26,663 nucleotides of DNA. Source: a virus. The DNA lies in IMG/VR virus record IMGVR_UViG_3300010885_054652, positions 1-26,663 of that record, one strand, 5' to 3'. Shown piece after piece: positions 8,399 to 25,224 of this stretch (the stretch's first letter is position 1; every line of letters starts with the position of its first letter). The notes under the pieces were generated by a model. That model had not been told where the DNA came from, made no database searches, and was given only the letters and a program-made list of their open reading frames with translations. The position numbers and the translations under genes were made by a program.

Positions 8399-10021
8399 AT
8401 GGCCATAGTTTGTCAGATCTGTAATCAAGAATTTGAAAAATTAGTATCCAGCACACATCTAAAATTTGCTCACAATATATCAAGCAGTGATTACAAGAAA
8501 TTATACGGCAACCTCAGCCTTGCATCAGATGACTATCGTGCCAGTCGCAGTGCTGACCGCAGAGGCGAGAATAACCCAATGTTTGGAAAAAAACATGGCA
8601 CAGAGGCTAAAAACAGCATTTCCCAAAAAAATGCTGGTCGCACTGCCAGTACCAAGGGGCAAAAAATAACCGACGCAACAAAATTAGCCAATATCAGAGA
8701 TGGACACAAACGTAGAGAAGCCTCATATAAAATAACCGGTCATCCGCGCCAAGGTGCTGTGCTATCAGATGAAACCAAATCTAAGATATCAGGCGCTGTT
8801 TCTAGGTATGCTGCCAACAACGCTGATCAGCTCACTGCTAGGGCCAAGAAAATACTAGATACCAAACGCATGAGAAATTACGACTTTGGATCCAGCATGC
8901 GTGGAAGAAGACACAGCAATGATACCAAAGAAAGAATTTCAAAAAGCAGCAAGCTGGTTGCAGAAAGAAAACACCAGGATGCGGTTTTGCGCTGGTTAGA
9001 CAAGATCAAAGCTGCCGGTATCACCTTGCTGGCTATCGATCACGGTAATGCCACATTGCAATGCGATCAATGTGCAAACGTATTCAATCTTACCACCCAA
9101 TACTTTACCAACAGTAAATTTAGCCCTGAAATGTGTGGGATCTGCTATCCCCCTCCCACCAAAAGCCAAGCCGAACTCGAACTGCTGGAATATGTGCGCT
9201 CCATTACATCAGAGATGGTAATCAGTGGTAATAGAAGCCTAATATTCCCATTAGAGCTTGATATCTATATACCAACTCTGCAAATAGCCATTGAATACTG
9301 TGGGCTATGGTGGCACAGTGAGTTGGCGGGTAAGTATCAATCCTATCATATCACCAAGCACGACCTCTGTGCAAACGCAGGGGCCAGATTGATCACCGTA
9401 TTTGAGGATGAGTGGATAAATCGTAATGAAATCGTCAAGTCCAGACTGAGGTCTATAATCTCCAAATCAGCTGAAAAAATCTATGCACGTAAATGTGAAC
9501 TTAGACCGATATCAAACCAAATAGCCAGACAATTCTGTGCCAACCATCACTTACAAGGGGCCGGATCGTCTAGAATTGCCTATGGTTTATATTATAACAC
9601 TGTGTTGGTGTCGGTCATGACATTTACATTGCCAAGTATCGCCAAAGGCAACAGAGTGATTACCCCAAGTACCTGGGAATTGAATAGATTTTGTACGATT
9701 CCAAATACAATCATAACAGGCGGAGCCAGCAGGCTATTTCGGGCATTCACAGATCAGCACCAACCAAATCAGGTGATCAGCTATTCGGATCTGCGGTGGA
9801 ACACAGGCAATGTTTACAATCAATTGGGATTCAAACACGGTGGACGAACCCCTCCGGGATATTGGTATTTTTCCTTGCCCAATCTAGTGAGAACTCATCG
9901 TTTTGCTCTCCGTAAAAACCCAAAGGATGATGCCAACAAAACAGAGTGGGAGAATAGACAAGATCAAGGATACAATCGCATCTGGGACTGTGGCCACGAC
10001 CGATGGAGTTGGTCAAAATGA
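8399..10021 (+). CDS. Free-standing homing endonuclease, EDxHD (Vsr-like) type with NUMOD3 repeats
   Basis: The 540-residue protein has clear modules. An N-terminal MucR/Ros-like zinc finger has C5, C8, H20 and H25, followed by DYKKLYG. Three NUMOD3-like DNA-binding repeats lie near 56-75 (GENNPMFGKKH), 114-133 and 166-185 (GRRHSNDTKERIS). A Cys4 ribbon has C222, C225, C246 and C249. The Vsr/EDxHD nuclease spans about 255-340 with SQAELELLEY (E259), LELDIYIP (D288), AIEYCGLWWHSE (E299, H306) and VFEDEW. A C-terminal domain often paired with this nuclease follows (WELNRFC, YSDLRW, GYWYF). Such enzymes cut phage DNA to spread their own gene. It sits between gp19 and gp18 on the opposite strand, and its DNA is visibly richer in A and AAA/ATA codons than its neighbours, fitting recent arrival. 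AAAGG precedes the ATG. Confidence 0.85.
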   Translation: MAIVCQICNQEFEKLVSSTHLKFAHNISSSDYKKLYGNLSLASDDYRASRSADRRGENNPMFGKKHGTEAKNSISQKNAGRTASTKGQKITDATKLANIRDGHKRREASYKITGHPRQGAVLSDETKSKISGAVSRYAANNADQLTARAKKILDTKRMRNYDFGSSMRGRRHSNDTKERISKSSKLVAERKHQDAVLRWLDKIKAAGITLLAIDHGNATLQCDQCANVFNLTTQYFTNSKFSPEMCGICYPPPTKSQAELELLEYVRSITSEMVISGNRSLIFPLELDIYIPTLQIAIEYCGLWWHSELAGKYQSYHITKHDLCANAGARLITVFEDEWINRNEIVKSRLRSIISKSAEKIYARKCELRPISNQIARQFCANHHLQGAGSSRIAYGLYYNTVLVSVMTFTLPSIAKGNRVITPSTWELNRFCTIPNTIITGGASRLFRAFTDQHQPNQVISYSDLRWNTGNVYNQLGFKHGGRTPPGYWYFSLPNLVRTHRFALRKNPKDDANKTEWENRQDQGYNRIWDCGHDRWSWSK

Positions 10022-10053: not shown

Positions 10054-13000
10054 TCAGCCGTTTCTGTTGGCGCCGGGTAGTGGTGCACCCGTGTTTAGAA
10101 TTCGTATTGGAATGTAAATAAATTCAATTGCTTTCTCAGGTTTGATTGCTATGTCAATCCACAGTTCATTTGCATCTATGCGTGCAGGAGTATTATTGGT
10201 AGGGTCGCATACCACAGCAAAGTCATACAATGCACGCAAACTAACCAAGTTACCCAAGAAGCTGGTGAACGTTGATGTGACCGCTTTTTGTGTCTGGATA
10301 TCATTCAGTTCAAAGAGGAACGGTTTGGCTAGGTTGTCCAACTGGTAGTTTAGGTAGCAAATCAGCCTGCTGACATTGACTCGATCGCGTGCTTCTGACA
10401 GTGCATCCAGTGTCTTCTGACCATATATCACCAATCCCCTGTTTGGTATGTAGGCGATTGGATTGATCTTGTTGGTATACAACACGTCACGCTGTCCTTG
10501 GTTCAGCTGAACTGGCTGATATGTGCCATCAGCCTGTAGATATCCGACCGAGTTGATACCAATCACAATGCCACGGTTGAAACCAGCTGGTGCAAACCAT
10601 GGGTATGCAACTTGGTCATTGTAGGCATATGTACGCAATGCCATGTGGCTTGGCGGTACCAATACGAAAGTGCCGTCTAGGTTTGTGCCAAGGCCCCAAG
10701 GATAATACAGAGCAGTGTATGGGTCGCCGTTGTAGGTAAGAGCAAGATCGCCCGTGTAGCTGGCATTTGCCGCATTTGTGGCCCAGTTCTGGATGGTTGT
10801 ACCATCTGGTTGTAGGCGTGCTGGTGTATCACCGATCACAAATGCAACGTTCTTGATATCCTGGTTCAGCAGGCCCATCTCAGGCAGTACCTCTGGATAA
10901 CCGGGCGCAGCAATGAGATTGAAGAACACGTTTTCGCTGCGTATCTCCTGGTTGCTGGCCAACTGTGCGTTGATAGCCTCTACTACGATGATGCGCTGCG
11001 ATTCATGACCCATGTATGGGCTGCCATCCGGCTTGTTGCCGCTGGCGGTTACCCAGGTATCAATGGGATATACGCTCTGTCCAGCATTGGCTGGAAAGTA
11101 GTTCTTGGTCCACTTCTTGACGTTGTTGGTGCTGTAACGTGTGTTGAACAGCAGCATGCCACGAGGGTACAGTTCGGCGTTGGGAGCATCGCTATCAACG
11201 GACGGAGCCACTTGGCCTGCTGTCCTGTTCATGGCCGCAGGCGTTTGGCTGCCATTTATGGTACCATCTGCTGTCCAGCGTGCATCCTCAAAAATTATAC
11301 CTGCTGGGCTGCTGTGATCAGTATTGTCAATCAGCGTCCATGAGCTGGTAGCAGCGGTATATCTATTGAGAGTTGGATAGCCTGGGTTGCTGCTGTCCAA
11401 CCATATGTCATAATCAACCAAGGCATTGCCGTTGCTCTGTGTAAGAGGTTGGCTACCATCTATTATCACGCCATTGGGATCGGTTGCAGGATAAACATTG
11501 CCATATGCTTGCCAGATCTGACCAGTGCCAACCATCATATCCACACGCAGGTGAGTGTTATACCAGTAGGTACCATTGGCCGGGGCGCCAGTTGGGCTAG
11601 TTGGGCTGGCCGTATAGGTGTTGAGTGCGTCAGGCCCACTCAGTGGTGCCCATGTGGTGCCGTACCACCTGTAGATCACAAAGTTTGCCTCTGGAGGTGT
11701 ATCATCATCGTTGTTGAAGCGTATGTAGATACTGCCAACGGCGCGCGAGGCACCAAATGCCATGTTTGCGATTTGATCTGCTGTCTGAGACATCTGGCTG
11801 GGCACCGTCACCTCGCTGGTATCGCCTGGTCCATACAGAGGAATGGTGCCTGTGTTGGGTACCGTGTTCAATGGAGTCCACACACCACCAATGTATTCTT
11901 TGAATGCCCAGCTGGCGCCGCGATTGGCAACATCAGTGTTTATCCAAACATTGTTGGCTGCCAATTCTGGCAGCTGGCTTGGCACCTGGAGATCAAACTG
12001 GTAACCGCGATATGTAAGCCTGCGGCCAAATGTCCAACCAGTCTTGATACCCATGGTGTTTAGAGCCGTTCCGCTTACGTCTGCGAGAATGAAATTGGTA
12101 CCGTTGGTGTTGGTAATGGTCAATATCTTGCCATTGGCTACGGCCTTGATCGGACCAGCAGCAGTTGCATTGAGATAACCAACCGCACTTGCGTTGATAG
12201 CATCAGCTATACCGCTTACATTGGTATTTGGAGTAGCTGGATTGCCCTGTGGCACATAGATCGTTGCTGGTCCTGTACCTGGATCAATTGTGAATGAGTC
12301 ACCGCTCAAGTTACCGGGGGTTAGGTTCACCAACAGATTGTTGTCCCCAACACCTGTCAATGCTGTTGTGGATGCTGGGTTGGATGGATATGCAGTATAA
12401 TCACCTGACTCCACGCTGGGACCGTATGTTGTATCAGCTGTGTTGAAGGTAATTGCTGCCACTCCCCACACAATGTTGATGGTTACCTGGCTAACGGTTG
12501 TCAACACACCATTCCTGTAGACCTTGACATTGCTGTCTGTGGTAGTAAAGCTGAGGTTCGGATTGGCCCCGCTGAAATCGCCCGGGCGGGCGCTGGCATT
12601 GTCAGCTGGATTCACATAGAGAGTTGGTGTATTGCCAACGCCTACATGTGTGAAGTACATGATCACTGGACTGTTGAAATGCGTGCTGCCATTGCCATAT
12701 TGTATGATATCGCCGTTTTGAAGGTTTCCTTCACTGCTGGCAAATGCTGCGCTGGTTACCTGTACGTTGGTAACAACGCCAACGCTTGATGGTGAACCAC
12801 CAACTATTTGTATATGATCGCCTGGGTTATAGCCCCCGCCTGCCTGTGCAAGGCCTGCTGGCACCGCGCTGGCAGTGTAAAGGTGTGTTGTGCTGAATCT
12901 AGGTGCGCTGTTGGTGCTGGTTACGCTACCAAAGTAATGCTGGTTGGTGGCAACTCCCAGCGCGGCCCAAATATCTTGTGGTGCAAGATTGAGGTTTACC

Positions 13001-14385
13001 ACGCTATGCAACCAGATGTCAGTGCCATCATAGTTGGTGATATTGAAATACAACAGGTTGCCACGCTGTGAAGTGCTGGCAACCGCATTGAGACCAGCGG
13101 TTTTCATTGCGGTATTCACTGTTGTGACAAATGAGTTTACCGTGGTCCCCGTGGCAGTAACGGTCACAGGCGCTGCCGTACCGATCTGTATCTGAACGCT
13201 TGCTCCAATGCTGATAACTGCGTTGGTAGCCCCGTGGCCCTTGGTGCCCGCAACAACACGAGGTGCTGCTGGGATCCACCCAAAACCTGGATAGTTTGCT
13301 TCTGAGCTACCAACCAGATACCACCAAGCCTTGGTACCAAGATCGGTTGTTGTTGTGATTTTTTCAAATATCTTGTTGCGAACGATGCCATCATTTGGAT
13401 CAGCACTGATCAGATCAATTGCATAATTGCCGCTGGTGCCATATCCATTGGCAGGGAAGATGTAATTCTTAGGAGTGCCAGTTGGGTTCATATCTGCATC
13501 AAAAAAGTTCAGAGCAGTGAGGACTTCTGTGTGGGTATTAGTGAGATCAATTGCAGTGTTTGGATTGCTGTTGACGATACGCAGGCTGTAAACCGTTGCA
13601 GAGTATGTAGCGGTATTGCCCTGAAGTGCTTCATGGCGCGCAAATATAAGCGCGGTGATACCAGCAGTGCTGAGAGTGGTGTTGGCATTGATCTTGCTTA
13701 CGATGGTGTTCAATGTATCTGGTTTTGCCGCAGCTGGACCATATATGTTCAGCGTAACACCATTTATGGCCAGCGCCCGAGCGGCGGTACCAGTTATAAC
13801 ATCAAACACCGCATCAGCATCAAGTATGGGTGTAGCAGTGCTGGACCCCATAACAAATGTCTCGAGATGTGATGTGCTGGTGATCTTTATTGGAGCTTCT
13901 GCTGTCCATGCATAGGCTGGATTGGACTGGCCGTTGCTGCGGAAAAGTCCAAAGGCTGTGTTGGCAGTGTCAAGCCAGTACTGTCCTTGCACAGTGGCCC
14001 CGGACGGAGCCATCGTGCTGGGAGCCAGCTGGCCGAGGTCAACGTCAGCACGCAGCACATATGCGGTATTGGCAATTCCCAGATACTCATAAGCAGCGAA
14101 CAGACCAGATTCGTTCAATTCATTGTCATATTGCACGCTACCGGCCACGCTATAGAACTTTGGATTACCAAACTTCTGTAGCAGAGCTCGCTGGCTGGTA
14201 ATCAGCTGTAGCTGACCAGCGCTTGACGACACCGTTCCAGATGCCAGGGCAGTGGTGCTGCCGGATTGATATTTGTTGCTGGCGGTTGCGATCAGCAGCA
14301 GCGGAACCGTGCCTTGACCGGCGGTAGCATAGAAGCTTTCGTCGGTTACAGATACCGATACGCCGGGTGAAACTAGAGTGGCCAT
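10054..14385 (-). CDS. gp18: Tail sheath protein (gp18-like), very large
   Basis: This contractile sheath subunit has 1443 residues against 659 in T4. The N terminus (MATLVSPGVSVSVTDES, then VPLLLIATA and FAAYEYLGIANTAYVLRADV) and the C-terminal 320 residues (RIIVVEAINAQLAS, NRGLVIYGQKTL, NVSRLICYLNYQL, IKPEKAIEFIYIPIRI) are the conserved sheath core. Between about 115 and 1120 lies an insertion with at least three modules of the form ING/IGT..., INA..., NGK-x-L-x-I, G-x-x-I (about 195-294, 391-478, 696-780), like bacterial hook-IN motifs. These are followed by Trp-rich W-x-D repeats (YDIWLDSSNPGYPTLNRY, 992-1009) known in other marine T4-like sheaths. The insertion probably sits on the tail surface. 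GAGG precedes the ATG, and a late-promoter-like site lies 33 nt upstream. Confidence 0.93.
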   Translation of the reverse strand: MATLVSPGVSVSVTDESFYATAGQGTVPLLLIATASNKYQSGSTTALASGTVSSSAGQLQLITSQRALLQKFGNPKFYSVAGSVQYDNELNESGLFAAYEYLGIANTAYVLRADVDLGQLAPSTMAPSGATVQGQYWLDTANTAFGLFRSNGQSNPAYAWTAEAPIKITSTSHLETFVMGSSTATPILDADAVFDVITGTAARALAINGVTLNIYGPAAAKPDTLNTIVSKINANTTLSTAGITALIFARHEALQGNTATYSATVYSLRIVNSNPNTAIDLTNTHTEVLTALNFFDADMNPTGTPKNYIFPANGYGTSGNYAIDLISADPNDGIVRNKIFEKITTTTDLGTKAWWYLVGSSEANYPGFGWIPAAPRVVAGTKGHGATNAVISIGASVQIQIGTAAPVTVTATGTTVNSFVTTVNTAMKTAGLNAVASTSQRGNLLYFNITNYDGTDIWLHSVVNLNLAPQDIWAALGVATNQHYFGSVTSTNSAPRFSTTHLYTASAVPAGLAQAGGGYNPGDHIQIVGGSPSSVGVVTNVQVTSAAFASSEGNLQNGDIIQYGNGSTHFNSPVIMYFTHVGVGNTPTLYVNPADNASARPGDFSGANPNLSFTTTDSNVKVYRNGVLTTVSQVTINIVWGVAAITFNTADTTYGPSVESGDYTAYPSNPASTTALTGVGDNNLLVNLTPGNLSGDSFTIDPGTGPATIYVPQGNPATPNTNVSGIADAINASAVGYLNATAAGPIKAVANGKILTITNTNGTNFILADVSGTALNTMGIKTGWTFGRRLTYRGYQFDLQVPSQLPELAANNVWINTDVANRGASWAFKEYIGGVWTPLNTVPNTGTIPLYGPGDTSEVTVPSQMSQTADQIANMAFGASRAVGSIYIRFNNDDDTPPEANFVIYRWYGTTWAPLSGPDALNTYTASPTSPTGAPANGTYWYNTHLRVDMMVGTGQIWQAYGNVYPATDPNGVIIDGSQPLTQSNGNALVDYDIWLDSSNPGYPTLNRYTAATSSWTLIDNTDHSSPAGIIFEDARWTADGTINGSQTPAAMNRTAGQVAPSVDSDAPNAELYPRGMLLFNTRYSTNNVKKWTKNYFPANAGQSVYPIDTWVTASGNKPDGSPYMGHESQRIIVVEAINAQLASNQEIRSENVFFNLIAAPGYPEVLPEMGLLNQDIKNVAFVIGDTPARLQPDGTTIQNWATNAANASYTGDLALTYNGDPYTALYYPWGLGTNLDGTFVLVPPSHMALRTYAYNDQVAYPWFAPAGFNRGIVIGINSVGYLQADGTYQPVQLNQGQRDVLYTNKINPIAYIPNRGLVIYGQKTLDALSEARDRVNVSRLICYLNYQLDNLAKPFLFELNDIQTQKAVTSTFTSFLGNLVSLRALYDFAVVCDPTNNTPARIDANELWIDIAIKPEKAIEFIYIPIRILNTGAPLPGANRNG

Positions 14386-17768: not shown

Positions 17769-18233
17769 TTAGAACTCAAACATTCCGTCGTGTATGATGT
17801 TTGTTTCTCCAAATGTCCAATCATAGCTGAGACCATCAGCACAAACTATGTTCTTTGCCACGATGTGCCATAGCCTGTTTCTACCACACAACAGTCTCCG
17901 TCGGCATTCGTCGACGTTGTCCTGCATGAGATCAACTCCATATATGGTGCCCAGTGCCTGTTCGAAATCATGTCCAGCTGCCAGCTTGCGGATCAATACC
18001 TCGCTGAGGAACTGACCATCACCGCATGCTGGATCACAAAAGGTCTTGGTGGGATCATCCCAGACATCCTGTGGTAGACGATCAAGTATCTCATTGACCA
18101 ACGGTGTTGGGGTAAACACTTCGCCATTGGCTTTGATTCTAGCAGCATCACGCTCAACACCACTCATATATTCTCGATCACGAAGATGGCCAACAATATC
18201 AACCAGCGTACGAGACCACAATGCTTTCAACAT
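17769..18233 (-). CDS. DNA adenine methyltransferase, N-terminal-type half (motifs X, I-III)
   Basis: This 154-residue protein has the AdoMet-binding half of an N6-adenine methyltransferase. Motif X-like GEVFTPTPLVNEIL is at 37-50, motif I FCDPACGDGQFL at 65-76, motif II GVDLMQDN at 99-106 (D101) and motif III CADGLSYDW at 131-139. It then ends, just where a normal Eco57I-like enzyme would continue into motif IV (NPPF). That missing half is encoded by the upstream overlapping gene (18199-19077). The start is firm: GAGGAG (18241-18246) lies 7 nt before the ATG at 18233, inside the other gene, and the two frames overlap by 35 nt. The two proteins probably assemble into one active enzyme. Confidence 0.85.
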   Translation of the reverse strand: MLKALWSRTLVDIVGHLRDREYMSGVERDAARIKANGEVFTPTPLVNEILDRLPQDVWDDPTKTFCDPACGDGQFLSEVLIRKLAAGHDFEQALGTIYGVDLMQDNVDECRRRLLCGRNRLWHIVAKNIVCADGLSYDWTFGETNIIHDGMFEF

Positions 18234-19077
18234 ATGATTGCTCCTCTGGTGTTAGTGCAAAATGATCATATAGTCCTTGATCTGTCCATGATCTAGTAAA
18301 ATCAACGGCAGGAAAGCTTCTTACACCTTCATTATGCTGTGCCATTCTGGTTATGCCAAGACAATATCTGTAGAGCTTGCTGGTAAAAACCGTGAACCAA
18401 TTGGCCCCGTTACCATTGGTGTAAGCATACACGCAACTGTCACCTGCCACATATCTACCCCATGTAACATGCTTGTCATAGGTGTTGGACCAAGGTACCA
18501 GTATCTTCTCATCATCATCAAATTCAGTGCTATCTGTCCTACAAAACTTGCCGTTGGTGAATACCACACGGTTACCAGAGTCACTGAACACCATCTTGTT
18601 GTTGCGAGTGTTGGTAACCAATGTATGCTTGATCACCTCACGATCTCCATTGAAGAATTTCTTAGCAATGCTGATACCATTGACATCATTTGGTATGAAA
18701 TCCATGCTGGCAAAATCCAGCAACAGGGTCTTGCTGCCTTGCTCAAGAATGCCTTGGCCGGTATTGGGTTGATTTATGATATGAAACCAGGAAAACAACA
18801 CACCAACCCCAGGAAAATGGCTGCCACAGTCCGTGTTATTGAGATAGCGCATATCCCTGGCTGCCAGCGTTTTGTATAGCTTGCCACTGCCGTTGGGGGC
18901 GATATTGCCCTTGGTCCAACTGTTGGGGGATATCATCAGCATGTGGCCGCCTTCTGCCAACGATCTCAACCCCAGTTCAATGAATTTTGGCCATAGCTTC
19001 CCGCTCTTGGCCTCTCGGTTGGAATTCTGGAATGGTGGATTACCCAGGAAGACATCAAATTTGAATCTCTTGCTCAT
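18199..19077 (-). CDS. DNA adenine methyltransferase, C-terminal-type half (motif IV, target recognition)
   Basis: The 292-residue protein starts almost at motif IV: MSKRFKFDVFLGNPPFQNSN, with the catalytic NPPF at 13-16. It has no AdoMet-binding motif I. It continues with GGHMLMISPNSW (motif V/VI region), a long target-recognition region, and the ending FPAVDFTRSWTD...LYDHF...TPEE that I know from the C terminus of phage Eco57I-like methyltransferases. So it corresponds to the C-terminal half of a linear enzyme but is encoded first. A TTG at 19095 is an alternative start; neither start has a good ribosome site, and the gene follows the nuclease stop closely, so coupling is likely. It overlaps the second half by 35 nt. 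Confidence 0.85.
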   Translation of the reverse strand: MSKRFKFDVFLGNPPFQNSNREAKSGKLWPKFIELGLRSLAEGGHMLMISPNSWTKGNIAPNGSGKLYKTLAARDMRYLNNTDCGSHFPGVGVLFSWFHIINQPNTGQGILEQGSKTLLLDFASMDFIPNDVNGISIAKKFFNGDREVIKHTLVTNTRNNKMVFSDSGNRVVFTNGKFCRTDSTEFDDDEKILVPWSNTYDKHVTWGRYVAGDSCVYAYTNGNGANWFTVFTSKLYRYCLGITRMAQHNEGVRSFPAVDFTRSWTDQGLYDHFALTPEEQSYVESIVVSYAG

Positions 19078-19085
19078 GGCATATT

Positions 19086-19613
19086 TTACTGGCAAAAGCT
19101 GCTATCAACTATCTGTTTCATCCAAGTGAAATTTTCTGGGAATCCATCTATGAACATGGTACCACTGTCAACCTCTTTGCCTCCATGCTGGTTGTTGAGC
19201 AGCCTGTCCAGATTAGCCTGCAGATCTTGCTTTGTTGCCCAGTAAAATTTGACCTCAGTTGGATACATGGCCAGGAATATCATCACATCGTAATCCTGAT
19301 CAATGCGGATCTGCTGCCATCTAAAATGGGTGCCTTGTCCTGCTTCATTTACCCATACGGTGCTGCCTTTGATTTCAATCTTGACACCATTTATCCGCAC
19401 ATCGTGCTGGCTGCTCTCGGGCTTTTCGGGTTTTACCCCAAATGTTGTTTCGATCCATTCCTTGGTGAGTTTTTCAAAAAATGCACCCTTGCTTCGGCTA
19501 GACAGATTGCGAGCAGATTCAAAGGCTGTGTTCAAATATGGATCGCGTGCTACCTTCCTCTGCAAATCCTGCGCGCATTTCATGTTGATATATTGGTCTG
19601 ATGTAATTGTCAC
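19086..19613 (-). CDS. PD-(D/E)XK nuclease, probable restriction endonuclease of the cassette
   Basis: The 175-residue protein shows a PD-(D/E)XK core: GAFFEKLTKEW (E47), then HDVRINGVKIEIKGS (D71, E80, K82), as in many type II restriction enzymes. DYDVMIFLAMYPTEVKFYW later matches the strand after the active site. It would cut DNA at sites left unmethylated by the neighbouring split methyltransferase, perhaps host DNA or rival phages. The target sequence cannot be read from this. A GTG at 19613 is chosen as start because AGAGGA (19620-19625) lies 6 nt before it and a sigma70-like promoter lies directly upstream. Longer in-frame starts would run through that promoter. It is the first gene of a three-gene unit. 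Confidence 0.75.
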   Translation of the reverse strand: MTITSDQYINMKCAQDLQRKVARDPYLNTAFESARNLSSRSKGAFFEKLTKEWIETTFGVKPEKPESSQHDVRINGVKIEIKGSTVWVNEAGQGTHFRWQQIRIDQDYDVMIFLAMYPTEVKFYWATKQDLQANLDRLLNNQHGGKEVDSGTMFIDGFPENFTWMKQIVDSSFCQ

Positions 19614-19632
19614 GGTAGATCCTCTCACCAGC

Positions 19633-19660
19633 ATGCTAACACATAAACGGCGGTTGTCAA
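19633..19660 (-). promoter_or_regulatory. Sigma70-type promoter before the restriction nuclease
   Basis: On the minus strand TTGACA (19660-19655, perfect) and TAGCAT (19638-19633) are 16 nt apart. The predicted start, near 19626, leaves a very short leader with AGAGGA. It lies only 2 nt from the late-promoter-like site of gp14 on the other strand. Confidence 0.55.
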
Positions 19661-19662
19661 GT

Positions 19663-19670
19663 GATAAATA
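19663..19670 (+). promoter_or_regulatory. Late-promoter-like site GATAAATA before gp14
   Basis: GTGATAAATATCGCC matches the late core at 7 of 8 bases. The predicted start is near 19676, 20 nt before the gp14 ATG, with AGGA in between. Confidence 0.55.
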
Positions 19671-19695
19671 TCGCCATAGAACCAGGAAATATCTC

Positions 19696-20793
19696 ATGCC
19701 ACCTCTAAGCCTTTGGCGCGGTATAAATGTCAAGACCAAAGACTACCAGTTCATAGATCGTCAGATAAGTGGTATGTATCGCATAGGCGGCACTGAGTTT
19801 TGGATCCACAAATATCTTGGTACAGGGGCCAGCAGCACAGGTGGTGCCATGCCTGCTACTCAAGCAGAGACACCTGAACTACAGATACAGGATATGGTCA
19901 ACATGGAAATCAGGGATCGCAAGTATGACCCCGACGTCTACAGCCTCAAAGGTCATTACCAGGTGTCAGATACTGAATTTGATCTAAGGCAATTTGGTTT
20001 ATTCCTCAGCAATGAAACCATTTTCATAACCTTCCATCTCAATGACATGGTTGATTCTATTGGACGCAAGCTGATGAGCGGAGACGTGATAGAAATCCTG
20101 CACCAACGAGATGATTTGGTGCTGGGACAATCAGTGCCAGTCAGCAAGTATTATGTGATAGAAGATGGTACTCGCCCAGCGGAAGGATATTCACCAACAT
20201 GGTGGGCTCATATGTGGAGGGTCAAGTGCAATCCAATAACTGATAGCCAGGAATATCGTGATATCCTGCAGGCTCCATTGAAAAACAGTGATGGCGATCT
20301 GGTACCAAATGCTGACGGAAGCGGCATAACCAGCTTGGCAGATCTTCTCAGCACCTACAACTACAACCTACAGATAAATGACGCAGTTCTGGCAGAAGCT
20401 GCTGCTGCGGTACAGTTTAGAAACACTCAAGGCGCGCATTTCTACGTGCTGGCAGGCGATCTTGACAAGCCAGTGAGCGTATGGGCCGGAGACGGTATCC
20501 CACCAAATGCCAGCAAGCCTGTCAGCAGCGGATCCGTGTTTCCCACCCATCCGCATGTGGGAGAATATTTCGTGAGGACCGATTACAGCCCACCTGTGCT
20601 CTACCGGCGTGCGGAGAATCGTTGGACCCGCGCCGAGATAAATTGGAGAGACAGCTGGTTGCCATCAAACAGGGTGTTGACCAGCTTTATCAACAATACC
20701 AACGAAACCACTCTAACCAACGGCAGCGTGGTACCGCAGCAAACCAACCTGCGCAATGCCATCAAACCCAAGCTAGACCCAGACCTAATATAG
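19696..20793 (+). CDS. gp14: Neck protein (gp14-like) with a long C-terminal extension
   Basis: The 365-residue protein matches the gp14 neck layout: QFIDRQISGMYRIGGTEFWI near the start, VYSLKGHYQVSDTEFDLRQFG, then GDVIEILH, KYYVIEDG and WWAHMWRVKCNP, with a partner-facing EYRDILQAP. T4 gp14 is 256 aa. The extra C-terminal region (about 210-365) contains an Ala/Glu-rich helix, GDLDKPVSVWAGDGIPPNA and an EYFVRTDYSPPVLYRR segment that resembles tail surface domains. The frame is open far upstream, but the ATG at 19696 has AGGA 9 nt before it and follows the late-promoter-like site. Gp13 and gp14 form the neck with gp15 at the tail end, and gp15 is two genes downstream. Confidence 0.75.
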   Translation: MPPLSLWRGINVKTKDYQFIDRQISGMYRIGGTEFWIHKYLGTGASSTGGAMPATQAETPELQIQDMVNMEIRDRKYDPDVYSLKGHYQVSDTEFDLRQFGLFLSNETIFITFHLNDMVDSIGRKLMSGDVIEILHQRDDLVLGQSVPVSKYYVIEDGTRPAEGYSPTWWAHMWRVKCNPITDSQEYRDILQAPLKNSDGDLVPNADGSGITSLADLLSTYNYNLQINDAVLAEAAAAVQFRNTQGAHFYVLAGDLDKPVSVWAGDGIPPNASKPVSSGSVFPTHPHVGEYFVRTDYSPPVLYRRAENRWTRAEINWRDSWLPSNRVLTSFINNTNETTLTNGSVVPQQTNLRNAIKPKLDPDLI

Positions 20794-24222: not shown

Positions 24223-25224
24223 ATGAAAACAGCATTAGTTTGTGGCGCTGGCGGATTTATCGGCAACCATATGGTTATCCGGCTAAAACAAGAAGGATAT
24301 TGGGTCCGCGGTGTTGATATCAAATTCCCGGAATACAATGATTCACATGCAGACGAGTTTGTAATTCAAGATTTATGTGAACGAAGCGCATGGGACACCT
24401 TGCTAGCACCGCCAGATGGCACGCAACTTGATGAAATATATCAATTTGCAGCCCTCATGGGAGGAGCTGGGTATATTTTCACTGGAATGCACGATGCGGA
24501 TATCATGCACAATTCTGCCACGATCAATCTCAACTGTTTGGATGCCATGGTCAAGCACGGCAAGAAATTTCACAACATCAGTGCTACCAAGATTTTCTAT
24601 TCCAGCAGTGCATGCATGTATCCTGAACACAACCAACAGGATCCACTGAATCCCAAGTGTAGAGAAGATTCAGCCTATCCAGCCAATCCAGACAGCGAAT
24701 ATGGTTGGGAGAAATTGTTCAGCGAGAGGCTGTTCCTCAGCTACAGCCGCAACTATGGTATACCAGTGAGAGTAGCACGATTCCACAATATCTTTGGTCC
24801 GCTTGGCACATGGCAAGGTGGCAAGGAAAAAGCGCCTGCTGCCATTTGCCGCAAGGTGGCCACAGCCGGCAACGACGGTGTTATTGAAGTCTGGGGCGAT
24901 GGTCAACAGACCCGCAGCTTCCTCTATGTGGATGAATGCATCGAAGGGGTCAAGCGATTGATGGAAGGCGATTTCCAGGGGCCTGTCAACATTGGCAGCG
25001 ATGAGATGGTGACCATCAACCAATTGGTAGAGATGATTGCTGAGATCAGCGGCAGAACCATCACCATCAACCATATTGACGGTCCGCTGGGTGTGCGAGG
25101 CCGAAACAGCGACAATGCATTGATCAACAAGCAGTTAGGTTGGGCCCCCAACCAACCGCTGGCCGATGGGTTGGCCATCACCTACCAGTGGATATGCCAA
25201 CAACTGGATCAGGCAGCACAATGA
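24223..25224 (+). CDS. GDP-mannose 3,5-epimerase-like enzyme
   Basis: The 333-residue extended SDR enzyme should convert GDP-D-mannose to GDP-L-galactose or GDP-L-gulose. The NAD-binding GAGGFIG is at 8-14. Catalytic residues known from the plant enzyme are all present at a constant offset of 14: C131 (SSSACMYPE), Y160 and K164 (YGWEK), and K203 (GGKEKAPAA). RFHNIFGPLGTW, GDGQQTRSFLYVDEC and VNIGSDEMVTINQ are near-identical to family hallmarks, as are the late GVRGRNSDN and LGWAP. A strong GGAGGAAGG site precedes the ATG. The next gene overlaps by ATGA, so the three sugar genes form one operon, probably for a modified surface or virion sugar. Confidence 0.92.
   Translation: MKTALVCGAGGFIGNHMVIRLKQEGYWVRGVDIKFPEYNDSHADEFVIQDLCERSAWDTLLAPPDGTQLDEIYQFAALMGGAGYIFTGMHDADIMHNSATINLNCLDAMVKHGKKFHNISATKIFYSSSACMYPEHNQQDPLNPKCREDSAYPANPDSEYGWEKLFSERLFLSYSRNYGIPVRVARFHNIFGPLGTWQGGKEKAPAAICRKVATAGNDGVIEVWGDGQQTRSFLYVDECIEGVKRLMEGDFQGPVNIGSDEMVTINQLVEMIAEISGRTITINHIDGPLGVRGRNSDNALINKQLGWAPNQPLADGLAITYQWICQQLDQAAQ

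What the first reader, a model, noticed from the sequence alone, without database searches (positions are those of the whole stretch)
17769..19077. Adenine methyltransferase split into two overlapping genes with its halves in swapped order
The first gene starts at motif IV (KFDVFLGNPPFQNSN) and carries the target-recognition half. The second gene, overlapping by 35 nt with its own GAGGAG site, carries motif X and motifs I-III and stops right after CADGLSYDW. In linear Eco57I-like enzymes CADG-x-YDW leads directly into FD-x-x-x-GNPPF, so the break is exactly at that joint and the pieces are reversed. This is a natural circular permutation and split, probably by gene duplication and loss of outer halves. 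It converts an X-I-IV order into IV-TRD-X-I.
Basis: partly seen in the sequence, partly recalled or inferred. Interest (0 to 1): 0.85.

Follow-up and report, generated by a model that had tools for sequence, protein, structure and literature searches.

The report
Two-gene DNA methyltransferase with swappable half
A phage gene pair encodes the two halves of one DNA adenine methyltransferase, catalytic and target-reading half first and cofactor-binding half second, and relatives across many phages and some bacteria suggest that the first half is a self-contained cassette that is swapped between systems.

Summary
On the - strand, gene A (18199-19077) starts at motif IV and carries the target-recognition half. 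Gene B (17769-18233) carries motifs X and I-III. They overlap by 35 nt, and B has its own GAGGAG site. The halves tile linear gamma-type methyltransferases: B matches CamA 26-159 and the A model matches CamA 154-577. It is not an assembly frameshift: 68 of 80 related IMG/VR loci have an NPP-motif gene directly before B, with mixed frame relations and strong purifying selection.

The explanation needs changing. For two polypeptides, gene order is not protein permutation; 13 bacterial relatives carry the same halves in order B-A. A true IV-TRD-X-I permutation does exist, fused, in Aeromonas phages. Many A genes carry an extra, decayed X-I domain upstream of motif IV, homologous to B.

New here: in those longer A genes an in-frame ATG sits just before motif IV (39/49, replicated), with Shine-Dalgarno-like sequence in 27/62 versus 9.4 expected from synonymous recoding. 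DNA homology between loci begins at that ATG. So IV-TRD is an exchangeable cassette, probably made as its own protein, pairing with B. The window carries it free-standing, after a Type II restriction-enzyme homologue. Nothing has been shown experimentally.

The parts
18199..19077 (-). Gene A: motif IV (NPPF) plus target-recognition half of an Eco57I-like N6-adenine methyltransferase, 292 aa (alternative TTG start at 19095)
   Evidence: ORF; Pfam Eco57I 5.8e-8, profile 72-141 only; model residues 2-275 align with CamA 154-577 (Z 13.4) and M.TaqI 95-412 (Z 11.3)
17769..18233 (-). Gene B: motif X and motifs I-III, cofactor-binding half, 154 aa
   Evidence: Pfam N6_Mtase 8.4e-6; phrog_4376 1.1e-18 and C-terminus of phrog_11371 2.8e-20; family profile hits CamA 26-159
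18199..18233 (-). 35-nt overlap of A and B in different frames
   Evidence: sequence; 49 of 68 related pairs share this frame relation, 16 and 3 have the other two
18241..18246 (-). GAGGAG, Shine-Dalgarno-like site of gene B, 7 nt before its ATG
   Evidence: sequence
19018..19062 (-). Motif IV region KFDVFLGNPPFQNSN
   Evidence: sequence; F7, N13, P14, P15 invariant in 21 A sequences
18108..18122 (-). Motif X region EVFTP
   Evidence: E38, F40, T41 invariant in 60 B sequences
18015..18041 (-). Motif I FCDPACGDG
   Evidence: G71 and G73 invariant in 60 B sequences
17817..17843 (-). Motif III region CADGLSYDW, 15 codons before B's stop
   Evidence: sequence
19086..19739 (-). Upstream neighbour: PD-(D/E)XK-looking restriction-enzyme homologue (true start uncertain), candidate restriction partner
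   Evidence: PADLOC REase_II PDLC03515 3.2e-18; phrog_6927 1.2e-25

Best explanation
Genes A and B encode the two subunits of one site-specific DNA N6-adenine methyltransferase. B supplies the SAM-binding half of the Rossmann fold (motifs X, I-III). A supplies the catalytic NPPF strand and the DNA-recognition domain. Docked together they restore the fold of linear gamma-type enzymes such as CamA and M.TaqI, whichever gene comes first. In relatives the IV-TRD part is a cassette with its own start codon, either free-standing (as here) or reading in frame behind another module (a decayed X-I domain, or a helicase plus such a domain), with translation probably also starting inside. The cassette is exchanged as a unit, presumably changing specificity while the upstream part and B are kept. 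In the window it probably marks the phage's own DNA, perhaps partnered with the restriction-enzyme homologue upstream. Shown by computation: gene anatomy, tiling of the halves, recurrence, purifying selection in relatives, cassette edges, start-site signal. Inferred: heterodimer formation, methylation, internal translation, change of specificity, link to the nuclease.
For: A and B match consecutive parts of the same enzymes. 68 of 80 B loci have an NPP-motif gene directly upstream. 13 of 13 large phage records hold one A and one B. A natural fused IV-TRD-X-I protein of about 383 aa exists in Aeromonas phages, with 27 records covered at 80% or more. Bacterial B-A pairs, where the upstream X-I copy in A has lost motif I (FLDPxxKSG) while B keeps it. 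Motif X is invariant in 60 B but present in about 4 of 47 upstream copies. Cassette dN/dS 0.05-0.17 where measurable. ATG 8 codons before the N of NPP in 39/49 long A genes, replicated on new loci 12/19 with a Met within 7-13 residues in all 19; strong SD-like sequence in 27/62 versus 9.4 (sd 2.5) expected from synonymous recoding and 10/628 at other internal ATGs. DNA identity rises from about 0.25 to about 0.8 at that ATG. Cassettes 90% alike with N-parts 20% alike; N-parts 88% alike with cassettes 35% alike.
Against: No experiment. The single-chain model of the pair is moderate (pLDDT 80, pTM 0.65); no coordinates were available, so docking of B on A was not measured. In a long-A pair (L015) the model was poor (pLDDT 57), B was not resolved and the decayed domain folded in cis with motif IV, so B's role there is uncertain. 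In Synechococcus phage ACG-2014f, B stands without an adjacent A. The window's own A has no clear SD before its ATG. The SD score is home-made, and the loci are related, so the counts are not independent.
Confidence: 0.78

Rival explanations
1. Classical circular permutation by duplication: a linear enzyme was duplicated in tandem, outer halves were lost, and the remaining IV-TRD and X-I parts split into two genes.
For: Many A genes carry a decayed X-I domain before motif IV that is homologous to B (hhalign 99.45 and 85.6 versus 0.2-0.3 for reversed controls); the Aeromonas phage protein is a fused IV-TRD-X-I; L079 and L087 keep both X-I copies nearly intact.
Against: B and the upstream copies fall in separate groups; bacteria carry B before A; upstream parts are unrelated between loci that share a cassette, with homology starting at a start codon.
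Confidence: 0.3
2. B is not the missing half but an accessory regulator or anti-restriction factor; A alone, or A with its upstream X-I copy, is the enzyme.
For: About half of the long A genes keep a GxG-like motif I; in the L015 model the upstream copy folds in cis with motif IV; ACG-2014f has B without adjacent A.
Against: The window's A has no X-I part at all; motif X and motif I are invariant in B; the Aeromonas phage fusion puts both in one chain; in bacterial pairs the upstream copy has lost motif I.
Confidence: 0.15
3. The split is an assembly frameshift or a decaying pseudogene.
For: The two ORFs overlap in different frames.
Against: The same split in dozens of contigs and named phages, mixed frame relations, dN/dS of the cassette 0.05-0.17 in relatives, own SD before B. 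One continuous frame would still give the order IV-TRD-X-I.
Confidence: 0.02

Closest known systems
Linear gamma-type N6-adenine methyltransferases (CamA, M.TaqI, M.BseCI; Pfam Eco57I / N6_Mtase)
   Same: Motif content and fold of each half; the two subunits tile the linear chain with a seam just before motif IV.
   Different: Two polypeptides, IV-TRD gene first; linear enzymes are one chain in order X-I-IV-TRD.
Split C5-cytosine methyltransferase M.AquI (alpha and beta subunits)
   Same: A natural DNA methyltransferase encoded by two genes whose products complement (cited in PMC5944983).
   Different: C5 chemistry; [quoted passage not shown] Here the cut is inside the catalytic domain, between motifs III and IV, and the enzyme type is N6-adenine.
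Beta-class amino methyltransferases (such as CcrM, M.RsrI)
   Same: Motif order IV-TRD-X-I, as the gene order here and as the Aeromonas phage fusion.
   Different: Sequence family is Eco57I/N6_Mtase, not N6_N4_Mtase; two chains in the window. Class definition from general knowledge.
Bacterial B-A-helicase systems (phylum of G004; PADLOC PDLC03375, PDLC03626)
   Same: Separate X-I gene, A gene with degenerate first motif I, NPPY, TRD and an ATG (or GTG) just before motif IV.
   Different: Gene order B-A-helicase; A is 500-524 aa; PADLOC files the matching A and helicase models as Type II or IIG enzymes and no separate B subunit was found named.

Membership tests
Gamma-class (Eco57I / N6_Mtase) amino methyltransferase | Motif IV NPP(Y/F) and motif X/I sequence of the family | tested here: met
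   Pfam Eco57I in A and N6_Mtase in B, both above gathering score
Gamma-class (Eco57I / N6_Mtase) amino methyltransferase | Single chain in order X-I-IV-TRD | tested here: not met
   Two ORFs, IV-TRD first
Gamma-class (Eco57I / N6_Mtase) amino methyltransferase | Transfers methyl to adenine N6 | not testable with these tools
   Needs protein or long-read methylation data
Beta-class amino methyltransferase | N6_N4_Mtase (PF01555) sequence family | tested here: not met
   No PF01555 match for A or B at E <= 1; Eco57I and N6_Mtase instead
Beta-class amino methyltransferase | Order IV-TRD-X-I in one chain | tested here: not met
   Order holds only across two genes here; met in one chain in the Aeromonas phage CC2 protein
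Circularly permuted methyltransferase | One polypeptide with permuted motif order | tested here: not met
   Separate ORFs with stop of A at 18199 and own start of B
Naturally split DNA methyltransferase | Two genes whose products tile one enzyme, neither with the full motif set | tested here: met
Naturally split DNA methyltransferase | Subunits bind each other and are active only together | not testable with these tools
   Model gives folds of both halves but the interface was not measured
Type II restriction-modification system | Restriction endonuclease gene beside the methyltransferase | tested here: met
   REase_II homologue directly upstream; homologues elsewhere in cyanophages stand without a methyltransferase next to them
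Type II restriction-modification system | Nuclease and methyltransferase share a target site | not testable with these tools
   No specificity data

The most novel reading that the evidence does not exclude
A family of two-subunit N6-adenine methyltransferases in which the catalytic/target-recognition half is a mobile cassette carrying its own start codon inside a larger gene. The full-length product (helicase or decayed cofactor domain fused to the same target-recognition domain) serves restriction or targeting, the internally started half joins subunit B to methylate, and one cassette swap changes the specificity of both at once.
Probability: 0.4. Interest if true: 0.9.

Novelty: new variant of a known kind. 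Interest (0 to 1): 0.72.

Why it matters
Natural split DNA methyltransferases cut inside the catalytic domain of the adenine type were not found in the papers searched. This family gives many natural examples of a Rossmann-fold enzyme divided between motifs III and IV, in both gene orders and fused, so the proposed routes of motif permutation in DNA methyltransferases can be tested on real relatives. If the internal start is real, annotation pipelines misread these genes: the 'Type IIG' proteins would hold a second protein, and the small neighbouring gene annotated as hypothetical would be an essential methyltransferase subunit. The swappable cassette would also be a ready way for phages to change their DNA marks.

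Tried and rejected
Programmed frameshift: rejected, frame relations of 68 pairs are mixed (49/16/3); the GGTT=G joined chain was made only for modelling. First alignment for folding (A3) put A rows on B columns and was dropped for A4 (checked). Model of the long-A plus B chain (L015, stop read through) was too poor to tell which X-I domain docks (pLDDT 57). One B shared by several A genes: considered after extra A-like hits, rejected for the 13 large records checked, which hold one A and one B each. Strict link of the upstream nuclease with A-B: not supported by relatives, its homologues in S-ShM2 and S-BM3 have no adjacent methyltransferase and no other locus fetched by then holds it. PDB sequence search with the nuclease: no hit. 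Literature searches on split, circularly permuted or bipartite adenine methyltransferases and on internal starts found no description of this family; subscription papers, preprints and REBASE were not searchable.

Full report
Observation. The window is a T4-like phage contig (terminase, tail sheath, tail-sheath stabiliser gp15, head-tail adaptor). On the - strand, gene A (18199-19077, 292 aa) begins with MSKRFKFDVFLGNPPF, that is motif IV, and contains the target-recognition half. Gene B (17769-18233, 154 aa) contains EVFTP (X), FCDPACGDG (I), YGVDL (II) and CADGLSYDW (III region) and ends 15 codons later. The overlap is 35 nt and GAGGAG lies 7 nt before B's ATG. Pfam places A at positions 72-141 of Eco57I and B at 22-118 of N6_Mtase.

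The halves tile one enzyme. A profile of B relatives hits CamA 26-159 and M.BseCI 9-103. A single-chain model of A followed by B (joined for modelling only through a +1 step at the overlap) has mean pLDDT 80 and pTM 0.65. Its A part aligns with CamA 154-577 (Z 13.4), M.TaqI 95-412 (Z 11.3) and M.BseCI 122-576; its B part aligns with BsaXI 333-544 (Z 10.4). CamA's NPPY ends at Tyr168 (PMC8187626). Docking of B on A could not be measured because coordinates are not returned.

It is neither artefact nor rarity. IMG/VR has 441 matches for B. Of the best 80, 68 have a gene with the NPP motif directly before B, with overlaps or short gaps in all three frame relations (49/16/3). Synechococcus phage S-CAM7, Prochlorococcus phage P-SSM2 and Synechococcus phage S-SKS1 have the same order. 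Thirteen large phage records each hold one B and one A. Cassette dN/dS is 0.05-0.17 where measurable.

Other arrangements. Aeromonas phages (CC2, 65, Aeh1 and others; 27 records covered at 80% or more) carry a single protein of about 383 aa that starts at MNPPY and ends just after motif III: a true fused IV-TRD-X-I permutation. Bacterial genomes carry the reverse gene order: 13 of 13 pairs examined are B-A, and where the flank was read a helicase whose N-terminus looks like GIY-YIG follows in several. In a sample of 296 genomes from one phylum, 18 have a stand-alone B-sized frame besides the phage-like seed. For a two-chain enzyme the order of the genes does not alter the protein, so 'circular permutation' describes the Aeromonas phage protein, not the window.

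The extra domain. Most A genes in relatives are longer than the window's. Of 68, 48 are classed as long and 14 are over 900 aa. Upstream of motif IV they carry a domain homologous to B: hhalign 99.45 (E 5e-22) for the 24 better preserved ones and 85.6 for the 22 decayed ones, against 0.2-0.3 for reversed controls. Motif X is invariant in 60 B but present in about 4 of 47 of these copies. In the bacterial A genes listed, motif I of this copy reads FLDPxxKSG or nearly so. B and the upstream copies fall in separate groups (several branches long, bootstrap not settled). In the one long-A pair modelled the upstream copy folded in cis and B was not resolved, so B's part there is open.

The cassette. 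A tree of the IV-TRD part shows the upstream type scattered almost at random (22 changes, shuffled mean 23.3). L046 and L080 share a 90% identical IV-TRD part but 20% identical N-domains; L027 and L033 share 83% against 26%. Conversely L184 and L202 share an 88% identical helicase part but 35% identical cassettes, while L037 and L184 share 82% and 89%. DNA identity in the first case jumps from chance level to 0.8-0.9 at one place: an in-frame ATG eight codons before the N of NPP.

The internal start. That ATG is present at exactly this position in 39 of 49 long A genes. In 19 long genes from loci fetched afterwards it is there in 12, and all 19 have a Met within 7-13 residues, several with extra residues between (MKEFD, MKYPFD), which fits a start codon better than a structural residue. 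Strong SD-like sequence stands before it in 21/43 and 6/19, together 27/62, against 9.4 (sd 2.5, maximum 16 of 200 runs) from synonymous recoding and 10/628 at other internal ATGs. In bacterial A genes 12 of 13 have the Met, the 13th has GTG after AGGAG, and 7 of 12 have strong SD-like sequence, against 6 of 78 control ATGs. The loci are related and the score is home-made, so the figures show a clear trend rather than exact odds.

Interpretation. The simplest reading is a two-subunit methyltransferase in which B binds SAM and the IV-TRD subunit holds the catalytic strand and recognises DNA. The second subunit is a cassette, free-standing in the window and in a few relatives, and embedded with its own start in most. 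Whether the long products act as restriction or targeting subunits with the same recognition domain is a hypothesis. The restriction-enzyme homologue before A (PADLOC REase_II 3.2e-18) is a candidate partner, but its homologues in cyanophages S-ShM2 and S-BM3 have no adjacent methyltransferase.

Literature. Known natural split methyltransferases are of the C5 type, such as M.AquI (PMC5944983). Searches found no account of a split adenine type cut between motifs III and IV, nor of the cassette; REBASE and closed journals could not be searched.

Noticed in passing
L136, L137, L138, L139, L140 (bacterial genomes): Recurrent operon-like set: X-I gene, A gene with degenerate first motif I and NPPY, and in several a helicase whose N-terminus looks like GIY-YIG; 18 of 296 sampled genomes of one phylum carry the X-I gene as a separate B-sized frame.
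   Followed up: partly
L007 4194-5345 and one search hits: Aeromonas phages 65, CC2, Aeh1 and relatives encode a fused, truly permuted IV-TRD-X-I methyltransferase, mostly annotated hypothetical.
   Followed up: partly
L004 4968-5372: Synechococcus phage ACG-2014f carries a B gene without an adjacent A; two genes further on lies an ORF with its own NPPY motif.
   Followed up: no
L051: In this record B and A are about 1.7 kb apart instead of adjacent.
   Followed up: no
window 8399-10021 +: Homing/HNH endonuclease homologue with a NUMOD3 motif whose C-terminal part also matches a Mom-like DNA modification family (phrog_1384, 4.9e-9).
   Followed up: no
window 19086-19739 -: Nuclease homologue also found in cyanophages S-ShM2 (next to a helicase) and S-BM3, without a methyltransferase beside it; possibly a stand-alone phage nuclease.
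   Followed up: partly
window 10054-14385 -: Very long tail-sheath-like protein (1443 aa) with the sheath C-terminal domain only at its end.
   Followed up: no
window 24223-25224 +: Nucleotide-sugar epimerase gene near the tail genes (phrog_540, Pfam Epimerase).
   Followed up: no
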